Source: Fibrobacterota bacterium (lineage in GTDB: Bacteria; Fibrobacterota; Chitinivibrionia; Chitinivibrionales; FEN-1185). Taken from it: a DNA stretch of 12,818 nucleotides. The position numbers and the translations under genes are program-made. This document shows positions 1 through 2,994 of the stretch, piece by piece. The notes beneath the pieces were generated by a model that was not told the origin of the DNA, ran no database searches, and saw only the letters and a program-made list of their open reading frames with translations. Each line of letters opens with the position of its first letter. Within the stretch, counting starts at the first letter, position 1. The stretch lies in assembly GCA_003165595.1 (NCBI GenBank), contig PLWQ01000042.1, positions 1 to 12,818 of the forward strand. The letters are read 5' to 3'.

Positions 1-964
1 TCATTACTATTGACAGGTTCCGCAGGAGCTTACGAAGAACCAAGGTCATAAGAGAACGCTGGCTTGCAGGTAGGGCCTGAAGATTTGGCCTTCTTAGATA
101 ATCTGATACTAGGGTATAAAGCCGGTCTTCACTTTCTTCCGGTGTAAAGGATTGCAAAATAGGATGCCTTTTGGTGTACGAAACATAAGCAGTAACTTGC
201 CGCCTGAGCGTTCTATGGCACACCGGTTTGAGCCGCGCTTTAAGTGCATCAAATACATTATTGTCATTTATCCTGGCATATTGTTCCCGGAAGCTCTTCA
301 AATCACCGAATACTCTTTCGTCAATAAAACTGACCAATCCATACAATTCAAGAAGCGAATTCTGCAAAGGTGTGGCCGTGAGCAACAACTTATGTTGCAC
401 ATTTGCGAGCGCGAGTTTGAGCGTGTTTGCAATCACGTTCGCCGGTTTGTAAACGTTGCGGAGCCTGTGGGCTTCGTCCATGACCACCAAATCCCATTTG
501 GTATTTAGAACATCGGCAGATTTGCCTCTCGCAAATTGGTAGGAACAAATAGTAATAAATTCACTACTTTCAAACGGACGGATATTACTATTCTTGAGTT
601 CAATATTGTAAGACCGCGTTTCAAGGATTCGGCAGGGAAGAAAAAACTTTTCCTGCATTTCCTGGTGCCATTGTTTGCGGAGATTTGAAGGCGTTATAAT
701 GAGAATTTGTCTTTTACGTTCCGCCCATTTCTGGGAAATAACGAGTCCTGCTTCAATGGTTTTTCCAAGTCCAACTTCATCCGCGAGAAGAGCTCCACGT
801 GCGAGCGGCGACTGAAAAGCGAATAACGCGGCCTCAACCTGATGCGGATTCAAGTCTACTTGAGCGTCGACAAGTGCTCCTGCAAGCTTGCCTATGTTAT
901 CGGAGGAAAAACGTTTCGTAAGTTCATGAGCGAAGTATTTGGCATGGTAATCTGTGAGTTTCAT
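1..964 (-). CDS. SNF2/DEAD-type DNA helicase, N-terminal part (cut by window edge)
   Basis: The reading frame is open from an ATG at 964 to the left edge and gives 321 residues with no internal stop. An in-frame TGA lies two codons upstream, so this start is firm, although the Shine-Dalgarno is weak. Superfamily 2 motifs appear in order: a Q-like NPHQ at residues 39-42, Walker A DEVGLGKT at 62-69, Walker B DEAH at 163-166, and motif III TATPLQN at 196-202. The N-terminus (MKLTDYHAKYFA) is typical of a family of large SNF2/RapA-like ATPases found beside DNA methyltransferases and other restriction-type genes. Helicase lobe 2 and any C-terminal domain lie outside the window. The codons look more A+T-rich than those of the core genes, which suits an accessory gene. 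Family assignment is secure; a role in restriction or defence is inference. Confidence 0.9.
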   Translation of the reverse strand, partial: MKLTDYHAKYFAHELTKRFSSDNIGKLAGALVDAQVDLNPHQVEAALFAFQSPLARGALLADEVGLGKTIEAGLVISQKWAERKRQILIITPSNLRKQWHQEMQEKFFLPCRILETRSYNIELKNSNIRPFESSEFITICSYQFARGKSADVLNTKWDLVVMDEAHRLRNVYKPANVIANTLKLALANVQHKLLLTATPLQNSLLELYGLVSFIDERVFGDLKSFREQYARINDNNVFDALKARLKPVCHRTLRRQVTAYVSYTKRHPILQSFTPEESEDRLYTLVSDYLRRPNLQALPASQRSLMTLVLRKLLRNLSIVM

Positions 965-1239: not shown

Positions 1240-1355
1240 CCATTTTGGGTTCTTTTTTGCAGGTCCAGGTGGGCGAGCGGGCTTCGAATCTTGCTTATTG
1301 CCGATTTGCTCACATGCGTATAGATCGCGCTAGTTTTTCCTGACGAATGCCCGCG
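1218..1355 (-). pseudogene. Tyrosine recombinase (phage integrase family), C-terminal remnant
   Basis: On the minus strand the sequence from about 1355 reads RGHSSGKTSAIYTHVS and then KSAISKIRSPLAHLDL. This is the signature end of a Xer/integrase-type tyrosine recombinase. It keeps the His of the LGH-like motif and the catalytic Tyr in IYTHVS (codon 1320-1322). Everything upstream is missing, including the box I Arg and the HxxR motif. Beyond 1356 the sequence turns into a pyrimidine-rich repeat on this strand. The frame stops at a TAG (1218-1220) after a short tail. The same frame then stays open for another 45 codons to a TGA at 1080-1082. Only about 33 residues are truly family-like, so this is a decayed fragment that cannot recombine DNA. 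It marks a past integration event next to the helicase and HNH genes. Confidence 0.7.
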
Positions 1356-1471
1356 TACCATTGAGAAAGAGACGAGGCCGACGGGGAGATAGAGAAAGAG
1401 GTGAAGGAGGAGAAGGAGGTTCTTCATGGTAGTAAATCAATTTCCGCCATTCCGCAAGGCAAGAGAAGAAA

Positions 1472-1588
1472 GATTCACCACAGAGACACAGAGGACACAC
1501 AGAAGAAGAAGAAGGAAGATTCACCGCAAAGGCGCGAAGGGCGCAAAGGAACGCAAAGAAGAGAAGACTCACCACAGAGGCACCGAGG
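1472..1588. repeat. Three copies of a CACCACAGAGRCAC-type dispersed repeat
   Basis: Related units begin gattcaccacagagacac (1472), gattcaccgcaaaggcgc (1518) and gactcaccacagaggcac (1566). A fourth relative lies at 4675, between zapA and rny. The sequence is purine-biased and gives spurious overlapping reading frames on both strands. Repeats of this look are common in intergenic DNA of environmental bacteria; their function is not known to me. The whole gap 965-1677 holds only the recombinase remnant, the inverted repeat, these units and hairpins; I see no intact gene there. Confidence 0.75.
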
Positions 1589-1615
1589 CCAAAGGCCGAG
1601 CCCGGAAGGAAGGCC
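1580..1615. repeat. Dispersed GC-rich element, copy A
   Basis: The segment starting gcaccgaggccaaaggccga and ending ggaaggaaggcc recurs at 2916-2952. Over 36-37 bases the two copies differ by one inserted base and two A-to-G changes. It fuses at its left end with the last purine-rich repeat unit, so the intergenic DNA is a mosaic of repeats. Confidence 0.7.
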
Positions 1616-1677: not shown

Positions 1678-2601
1678 CTACAATGCCTCATAATGTTCTA
1701 CCACCCGTCCGCAATAATCAACATACTCCTCTGCCGCCAAATTCCCTTTTGAATCATTGACAAGCCACGAGCATATTTCGAAGCCAAGAACTGCGGACGC
1801 GGGATCGATATGATCGACCGTAGGCAGCAGAGAGAATTCCTTTTCCCGGTTTGTCCTGTCTTTTGGCGCGGCTTTGCCCCATGTTTCGATGAGGTCCCAT
1901 TGGAGCGCGGAACCGGTAAACGGGTCTTTTCCGTTGCCTGCGACGACCGCGTCGTGAATCGCCTGCTTGTACAGGGTTTTTGATTCGGCCGCGGCGCAGG
2001 GACGCTTGAGCGCGGAGTCGCGTTTGAATTCCTGTTTCGCGCGCGTGTCCAGCCATTTGCGGTACACGGCCGGCGCGCATACGCCTTTCAGGAATGCGGG
2101 GAGCAGGTAGAGGGGAGTGGCCTTGGTTTTTCGTATGGTTTGCTTTGACCGGAAGGCTGTGATTTGCGCGCACAGGGCAACAAACTCGCGCGGGGCCAAA
2201 AACGTCTTGGCGGTGTTTGACATCCAGGAACATATTTCAAACTCAAGGTCGGTTGCGTCCGGGTCCACATGGTCGGCCGTGGGAAGCAGGTCGTATTCCC
2301 TTTTGTATCCGGCGTTTCCCTTTGCCGCGCCCGGGTCCCAGGTGCCGATGAGGTCCCACCGGAGGGCGTCGCCCGAATACGGGTCGAAGAGCCCGGCGGC
2401 AATTACCGCGGCGTGAAGTCTTTGCATGTAGACGTTGCGCGGGGTGGCGTTTGCAAACGGCTTATGGTTTTTCAGGTCTCTTTTGCGCAGGGATGAGGCC
2501 TTGACATTAAGCCACTGCCGATACGTGGCGTTTGAGACCTGAGTTTTTAGGAATTCCGGGACGATAAAGGGAAATGGTTTGGGGAGGGAGTGGATTTCCA
2601 T
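1678..2601 (-). CDS. Tandem-duplicated HNH-endonuclease-like protein
   Basis: This 307-residue protein consists of two copies of one domain of about 135 residues (roughly 11-146 and 166-300). Each copy has, in order, a P(E/A)FLK start, a YR(Q/K)WL helix, DP(Y/F)(S/T)G.AL.WDLI.TW, LLPT.DH(V/I)DP, FEICSW and a closing N..K motif. The DH (residues 110-111 and 263-264) and N..K (129-132, 282-285) resemble the metal-binding His and the Asn of HNH nucleases. Both copies keep these residues. There is no signal peptide or membrane segment. Single-copy relatives exist, as I recall, as uncharacterised proteins in environmental bacteria, so two copies would be unusual. An AAAGGA Shine-Dalgarno about 8 bases before the ATG supports the start. 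The gene stands alone between repeat-filled gaps, downstream of rny. Nuclease activity and any biological role are inference. Confidence 0.8.
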   Translation of the reverse strand: MEIHSLPKPFPFIVPEFLKTQVSNATYRQWLNVKASSLRKRDLKNHKPFANATPRNVYMQRLHAAVIAAGLFDPYSGDALRWDLIGTWDPGAAKGNAGYKREYDLLPTADHVDPDATDLEFEICSWMSNTAKTFLAPREFVALCAQITAFRSKQTIRKTKATPLYLLPAFLKGVCAPAVYRKWLDTRAKQEFKRDSALKRPCAAAESKTLYKQAIHDAVVAGNGKDPFTGSALQWDLIETWGKAAPKDRTNREKEFSLLPTVDHIDPASAVLGFEICSWLVNDSKGNLAAEEYVDYCGRVVEHYEAL

Positions 2602-2618
2602 GGGGTATTCCTTTTGGT

Positions 2619-2751: not shown

Positions 2752-2915
2752 AACGCCTTCCCATAGGAGCGCCGCTGCGCGGCTGTCAAGACAAAAGACC
2801 AAGTCGATGCTTCAGGTGCGCGCGGGCCTTCAGCGCGCGCGTTAGGACGGACCGCAGGGTGCGCCGGAGCGCAGGGCCGCCCGACCACGGCCCGCAGGGC
2901 CATAGTGGCGGTGCG

Positions 2916-2952
2916 GCACCGAGGCCAACAGGCCGAGCCCGGAGGGAGGGCC
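2916..2952. repeat. Dispersed GC-rich element, copy B
   Basis: This is the second copy of the element at 1580-1615, beginning gcaccgaggccaacaggccg and ending ggagggagggcc. It directly abuts the perfect palindrome starting at 2955, so the two may form one composite repeat unit. Confidence 0.7.
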
Positions 2953-2954
2953 GA

Positions 2955-2994
2955 CCCTTTGTAGGGGCACAAAATTTTGTGCCCCTACAAAGGG
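2955..2994. repeat. Perfect 40-bp palindrome downstream of rny
   Basis: ccctttgtaggggcacaaaa (2955-2974) is followed immediately by its exact reverse complement (2975-2994), with no spacer. It lies 43 bases past the rny stop codon. The GTAGGGGC...GCCCCTAC core resembles short palindromic repeats scattered through many environmental bacterial genomes. There is no T-run after it on the minus strand, so a standard intrinsic terminator is unlikely, but the hairpin could protect the rny transcript end. Confidence 0.85.

What the first reader, a model, noticed from the sequence alone, without database searches (positions are those of the whole stretch)
1678..2601. Protein built from two tandem HNH-like domains
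Residues 11-146 and 166-300 align along their whole length, including the PxFLK start, DPxxGxALxWDLIxTW, LLPTxDHxDP, FEICSW and N..K motifs. Both copies keep the putative catalytic His and Asn, which argues for selection on both rather than decay of one. Relatives I recall have one copy. A fused pseudo-dimer nuclease next to recombinase debris and repeats could belong to a mobile or defensive function.
Basis: partly seen in the sequence, partly recalled or inferred. Interest (0 to 1): 0.7.

Follow-up and report, generated by a model that had tools for sequence, protein, structure and literature searches.

The report
Duplicated HNH-like nuclease, recurrently fused
This bacterial gene encodes two linked copies of an unnamed HNH-type DNA-cutting domain whose one-copy relatives often sit beside restriction or BREX phage-defence genes, so it is most likely a fused-pair defence nuclease that also travels with mobile-element debris.

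Summary
Confirmed. The minus-strand ORF 1678-2601 (307 aa) is two tandem copies of one domain, residues 12-146 and 165-299: 43% identity over 135 residues, no gaps, E 9e-42. The domain matches no Pfam, NCBIfam or PADLOC family. The best profile match is PHROG 1035 'endonuclease VII' (E 7e-4 here, 4e-6 in a sister copy). AlphaFold gives a strand-strand-helix unit carrying the DH and N..K motifs, and HNH enzymes (PacI, McrA, Gme nickase, Cas9 HNH) dominate the structure matches, all weak. The full protein is modelled at pLDDT 91, pTM 0.87. All 14 halves of seven two-domain proteins keep D, H, N and K. Two-domain forms recur (five here, two in relatives); a single duplication is rejected (AU p 0.008, 0.026), so duplication or conversion happened repeatedly. 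All six relatives in other phyla are single copies. Single copies directly follow brxL, an MmeI-like enzyme or an Eco57I-like methylase in three phyla. Two-domain copies often adjoin tyrosine recombinases. Best explanation: an accessory restriction nuclease of an undescribed HNH family that works as a pair and is repeatedly fused into a pseudo-dimer. DNA cleavage, dimerisation and phage defence are inferred, not shown.

The parts
1678..2601 (-). Two-domain HNH-like nuclease gene, 307 aa
   Evidence: seven two-domain proteins aligned
2164..2568 (-). N-terminal domain copy (residues 12-146)
   Evidence: self-alignment; predicted structure
1705..2109 (-). C-terminal domain copy (residues 165-299)
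   Evidence: PHROG 1035 match residues 175-304; predicted structure
2269..2274 (-). D110-H111, putative catalytic His of copy 1
   Evidence: invariant; ends strand 107-111 in the model
2206..2217 (-). N129..K132, HNH Asn helix of copy 1
   Evidence: invariant; helix 126-131 in the model
1810..1815 (-). D263-H264, putative catalytic His of copy 2
   Evidence: invariant; strand 260-264 in the model
1747..1758 (-). N282..K285, HNH Asn helix of copy 2
   Evidence: invariant; helix 279-285 in the model
2609..2613 (-). AAGGA ribosome-binding-like site 7 nt before the ATG
   Evidence: sequence printed
1278..1352 (-). C-terminal remnant of a tyrosine recombinase (GHSSGKTSAIYTHV...)
   Evidence: BLASTP E 4e-4 to the genome's C9 integrase; no Pfam hit
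1435..1596 (+). AATCAATTTCCGCC segment shared with the recombinase-HNH spacers of C10 and C32, followed by three CACCACAGAG-type repeats
2828..2960 (+). Dispersed ~130-bp repeat, at least 40 copies in the genome
2..964 (-). SNF2 helicase (best PADLOC model DrmD), cut by the contig end; nearest downstream gene
   Evidence: Pfam PF00176 E 1e-34; PADLOC DrmD E 4e-87

Best explanation
The protein is a DNA endonuclease of an undescribed HNH (beta-beta-alpha metal) family. Each half is a full catalytic domain: an N-terminal pair of helices followed by the beta-beta-alpha unit, with His activating water and Asp and Asn holding a metal ion. The single-domain form is an accessory restriction nuclease of R-M and BREX-like loci that would act as a homodimer, each subunit nicking one strand. 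In this lineage the gene was duplicated in place more than once to give a single-chain pseudo-dimer, which cuts both strands without needing a partner and lets the two halves diverge. Shown: the duplication, its recurrence, retention of both active sites, predicted fold, and linkage to R-M/BREX/helicase genes and to recombinases. Inferred: DNA as substrate, double-strand cutting, dimer logic, phage defence.
For: Self-alignment E 9e-42. PHROG 1035 'endonuclease VII' E 7e-4, E 5e-5 and 4e-6 in sister two-domain proteins, over the catalytic region. Domain model pLDDT 83.6 with strand-strand-helix at the motifs; Foldseek's top rows are HNH or HNH-containing enzymes, and VIA-align best Z 5.8 to PacI over the whole domain, with McrA, Gme HNH nickase, Cas9 HNH and T4 EndoVII also listed. 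Full model pLDDT 90.9, pTM 0.87. D, H, N and K invariant in all 14 halves. Single copies 22 bp after brxL, about 27 bp after an MmeI-like type IIG enzyme and an Eco57I-like methylase, and within 5 kb of BrxC/PglX-like genes. In this genome 4 of 8 loci lie within about 7 kb of one of 13 methylase/SNF2 places, binomial P about 2e-4. One duplication rejected, p 0.008 and 0.026.
Against: No Pfam, NCBIfam or PADLOC HNH model matches. Structural scores are weak (Foldseek E at best 0.33; Z below 6) and the full-length model finds nothing significant. Several copies (C27, G002 C21, Acidobacteria beside citrate synthase) have no defence neighbour. In the window the helicase is 713 bp away behind debris, so no operon. 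The neighbourhood statistic is partly after the fact. Gene conversion between halves could mimic independent duplication.
Confidence: 0.6

Rival explanations
1. A selfish, homing-type nuclease gene: the HNH protein cuts empty target sites and so spreads its own gene, helped by neighbouring recombinases and repeats; nearness to defence genes only reflects shared variable regions.
For: Patchy, multi-copy and decaying: 4 of 167 phylum genomes, 8 loci here plus fragments. In this genome 2 of the 7 Pfam-detected tyrosine recombinases lie about 250-340 bp from a two-domain copy (C9, C32), with recombinase fragments at C4 and C10. A Y1 transposase gene adjoins the G035 copy. Repeats flank many copies.
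Against: Copies are only about 40-50% identical, so there is no recent burst. None lies in an intron or intein. Relatives in other phyla are single copy and three single copies sit in apparent transcription units with R-M or BREX genes.
Confidence: 0.2
2. Cargo of tyrosine-recombinase (integron-like) elements with a function other than defence, for example a recombination or junction-resolving nuclease like T4 endonuclease VII that helps the element move.
For: Adjacency to recombinases in C4, C9, C10 and C32, with a shared 59-bp 93% identical spacer in C10 and C32; best profile is the endonuclease VII PHROG.
Against: Arrangement is not constant: divergent in C10 and C32, convergent in C9, and beside a remnant in C4. 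Single copies lack recombinases and some adjoin methylases or brxL. No attC-like site found around C4, C10, C32 or C41 in a crude pattern scan.
Confidence: 0.12
3. One half is catalytic and the other is mainly a DNA-binding or structural partner, so the protein is a nickase rather than a double-strand cutter.
For: Halves share only 43% identity; the PHROG match is to the second half in the window protein.
Against: Both halves keep every putative catalytic residue in all seven two-domain proteins, and both are modelled with the same motif layout.
Confidence: 0.08

Closest known systems
T4 endonuclease VII-like HNH proteins (PHROG 1035)
   Same: Best profile match over the catalytic region, DH and N motif; obligate dimer in T4 (the dimer is from general knowledge)
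   Different: The zinc-binding cysteines of endonuclease VII (recalled) are not seen at the equivalent place (DPYTG instead of CxxC); N-terminal helices differ; two domains on one chain; no phage relative found
HNH restriction endonuclease PacI (3ldy)
   Same: Best structural match over the whole single domain, Z 5.8, 118 residues, similar size of about 142 aa; PacI is a homodimer (recalled)
   Different: 9% identity; PacI's zinc-binding cysteines (recalled) not conserved here; PacI is not a tandem fusion
Standalone HNH nucleases encoded in BREX loci (PMC12839542)
   Same: A single-domain relative sits directly after brxL in a BREX locus; the paper reports standalone HNH nucleases as auxiliary effectors of BREX
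   Different: The passages read here do not describe this family or tandem forms; most copies are outside BREX loci
Cas9 and Cap5 HNH domains
   Same: Appear among structure matches
   Different: Parts of larger guided or signalled proteins; no guide RNA or sensor part here

Membership tests
HNH / beta-beta-alpha metal (His-Me finger) superfamily | strand-strand-helix core with the catalytic His at the end of strand 1 and Asn in the helix | tested here: met
   model: strands 100-104 and 114-118, helix 119-125 with H104 and N122; repeated twice
HNH / beta-beta-alpha metal (His-Me finger) superfamily | catalytic His and Asn conserved across the family | tested here: met
   26 of 27 domains keep both; the exception is the Akkermansiaceae row L030
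HNH / beta-beta-alpha metal (His-Me finger) superfamily | recognised by curated HNH profiles | tested here: inconclusive
   no Pfam or NCBIfam match; PHROG 1035 and 3322 endonuclease profiles match at E down to 4e-6
HNH / beta-beta-alpha metal (His-Me finger) superfamily | metal-dependent DNA cleavage | not testable with these tools
   needs purified protein
Recombination endonuclease VII family | zinc site of four cysteines (recalled) around the HNH core | tested here: not met
   alignments show DPYTG or DxYT where the first CxxC is expected; only two cysteines are conserved
Recombination endonuclease VII family | significant match to the family profile | tested here: inconclusive
   PHROG 1035 E 4e-6 to 0.012 in several members, none in others
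BREX core or constant accessory component | regularly encoded in BREX loci | tested here: not met
   only the Paraburkholderia and C2 copies are beside BREX-like genes
Homing endonuclease in intron or intein | located inside an intron or intein | tested here: not met
   copies are free-standing genes in unrelated places
Type II restriction endonuclease | paired with a cognate methyltransferase and sequence-specific cutting | tested here: inconclusive
   some single copies follow a methylase directly (L027, L029), the window gene has none in view; cutting not testable

The most novel reading that the evidence does not exclude
A previously undescribed HNH nuclease family that is repeatedly converted into a single-chain pseudo-dimer and spread through the genome by tyrosine-recombinase elements, so that one host carries a set of diverged paired nucleases with different targets: a modular restriction arsenal.
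Probability: 0.15. Interest if true: 0.65.

Novelty: new variant of a known kind. Interest (0 to 1): 0.42.

Why it matters
It adds an unnamed HNH family to those found beside R-M and BREX loci, where the source of nuclease activity is debated. It also offers several natural tandem fusions with both active sites kept, so the question of whether HNH domains gain by becoming single-chain pairs can be tested directly by comparing one- and two-domain forms and single-site mutants.

Tried and rejected
Pfam, NCBIfam and PADLOC scans of the protein and family gave no hit. Solved-structure sequence searches gave only chance matches. IMG/VR viral contigs and the phage collection gave no relative, so a phage gene is not supported. 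Foldseek with the full-length model gave no meaningful match, and VIA-align matched mostly the second half. A crude attC search found candidates only upstream of the C9 integrase, on the side away from the HNH gene, so an integron-cassette reading was dropped. The idea that recombinase adjacency is significant using all four cases was discounted because the C4 and C10 fragments were found only by looking there; only C9 and C32 count as unbiased. Decay of one half was rejected because all catalytic residues are kept in all 14 halves.

Full report
Observation. The minus-strand ORF at 1678-2601 encodes 307 residues and starts 7 nt after AAGGA. The two halves align without a gap over 135 residues at 43% identity, E 9e-42.

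Family. No Pfam, NCBIfam or PADLOC model matches. The best profile is PHROG 1035, endonuclease VII: E 7e-4 for the window protein, 5e-5 for the C10 copy and 3.9e-6 for the C41 copy. Twenty-one domains from this lineage show an invariant pattern of Y20, D35, Y51, A58, D66, P67, L73, L98, P100, H104, P107, I116, C117, N122, K125, C137 in the numbering of the second half. With six relatives from other phyla, H and N survive in 26 of 27 and K in 27 of 27. The exception is an Akkermansiaceae protein (L030) that has lost the His and carries an extra N-terminal region.

Fold. A domain model from 21 sequences has pLDDT 83.6 (other models 52-61). It is two long helices followed by strand 100-104 (ending in DH), strand 114-118, helix 119-125 (holding N122) and a final helix: the beta-beta-alpha metal layout. 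Foldseek against PDB ranks HNH enzymes first (Gme HNH nickase, ScoMcrA, ZRANB3 HNH), but with E of 0.33 or worse. VIA-align puts PacI first, Z 5.8 over 118 residues, with McrA, the Gme nickase, Cas9 HNH, EndoVII and Cap5 below, and some unrelated rows between. Each score is weak, yet enzymes of one superfamily dominate the list. The full protein is modelled at pLDDT 90.9 and pTM 0.87, which implies a defined arrangement of the two halves; the coordinates could not be examined, so symmetry is not shown.

Two copies recur. The genome of the window (a Fibrobacterota assembly; its nearest named relatives are Chitinivibrionales) holds five two-domain genes (C4, C9, C10, C32, C41), three one-domain genes (C2, C21, C27) and fragments on C15. 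Two relatives (G002, G035) have one two-domain gene each plus single copies and debris. Only 4 of 167 genomes of the phylum have any match. All 14 halves of the seven two-domain proteins keep D, H, N and K. On a tree of 24 domains the N-halves do not form one clade (AU p 0.008) nor do the C-halves (p 0.026). The halves of C41 and of G002 C137 pair with each other, while the C-halves of C4, C10 and C32 group together. So tandem forms arose more than once, or halves were homogenised by conversion. Relatives in Gemmatimonadetes, Acidobacteria, Akkermansiaceae, Paraburkholderia, Janthinobacterium and Qipengyuania are single copy, one per genome or record searched.

Neighbourhood: defence. In Paraburkholderia the gene starts 22 bp after brxL at the end of a BREX operon. 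In the Gemmatimonadetes contig it starts about 27 bp after an MmeI-like type IIG enzyme, and in G002 about 27 bp after an Eco57I-like methylase. G002 C46 has it beside type III-like methylase and helicase genes. The C2 copy is upstream of BrxC- and PglX-like genes, C32 is 2.3 kb from a type IIG enzyme, C21 about 6 kb from a methylase, and the window copy 713 bp from a DrmD-like SNF2 helicase. Genome-wide there are 13 Eco57I, N6/N4-methylase or SNF2 places. Four of eight HNH loci lie within about 7 kb of one, against an expected 0.3 (binomial P about 2e-4); part of this choice was made after seeing the neighbours. Other copies have no such neighbour, including the Acidobacteria gene beside citrate synthase. 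Standalone HNH nucleases as BREX auxiliaries are already reported (PMC12839542, read).

Neighbourhood: mobility. PF00589 finds seven tyrosine recombinases in the genome, and two are about 250-340 bp from two-domain copies (C9, an integron-type integrase; C32). Fragments lie beside C10 and, as a 25-residue remnant, beside the window gene. C10 and C32 share a 59-bp, 93% identical spacer, and an AATCAATTTCYGCC segment marks all three of C4, C10 and C32. A dispersed repeat of about 130 bp (at least 40 copies) lies within about 250 bp of five loci. A Y1 transposase gene adjoins the G035 copy. The copies are only 40-50% identical, so recent transposition is not indicated.

Mechanism. The best reading is an HNH endonuclease. 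Single-domain forms would pair as homodimers, as PacI and endonuclease VII do (general knowledge), and serve as accessory restriction nucleases. Tandem forms are single-chain pairs able to cut both strands and free to diverge. Sequence, fold prediction, retention of both sites and linkage are shown; substrate, cutting and defence are inferred.

Standing. It belongs to the HNH superfamily on fold and residues, is not a member of the endonuclease VII or PacI families by their zinc sites, and is not a BREX core part. It is a new family-level variant of a known kind of enzyme. The recurrent fusion is its most unusual feature.

Noticed in passing
window 2828-2960: Dispersed GC-rich repeat of about 130 bp, at least 40 copies in the genome (156 first-look candidates), within about 250 bp of five HNH-family loci.
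   Followed up: partly
window 1464-1596: Three degenerate CACCACAGAGACACAG-type repeats; the same motif occurs near most copies of the gene in this genome.
   Followed up: partly
window 2955-2994: Perfect 20+20 bp palindrome (CCCTTTGTAGGGGCACAAAA / TTTTGTGCCCCTACAAAGGG) with no spacer.
   Followed up: no
L042 2995-4293 (G000 C9): Full-length integron-type integrase next to the C9 two-domain copy; a 70% identical second copy is on C39. An attC-like pattern was found only upstream of it.
   Followed up: partly
L037 10180-10238 and L038 7274-7332: C10 and C32 copies share a divergent HNH-recombinase layout with a 93% identical 59-bp spacer, and the assembly breaks at the recombinase in both.
   Followed up: partly
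L030 441-1262: Akkermansiaceae homologue lacks the catalytic His and is fused behind an extra N-terminal region of unknown type: a possibly inactive version.
   Followed up: no
L044 (G000 C15), L045, L048, L049, L050: Truncated pieces of the family in this genome, G001 and G035, showing loss as well as gain.
   Followed up: no
window 2-964: SNF2 helicase of much lower GC (45%) than the housekeeping genes (56-62%), best PADLOC model DrmD, cut by the contig end: a probable horizontally acquired defence gene.
   Followed up: partly
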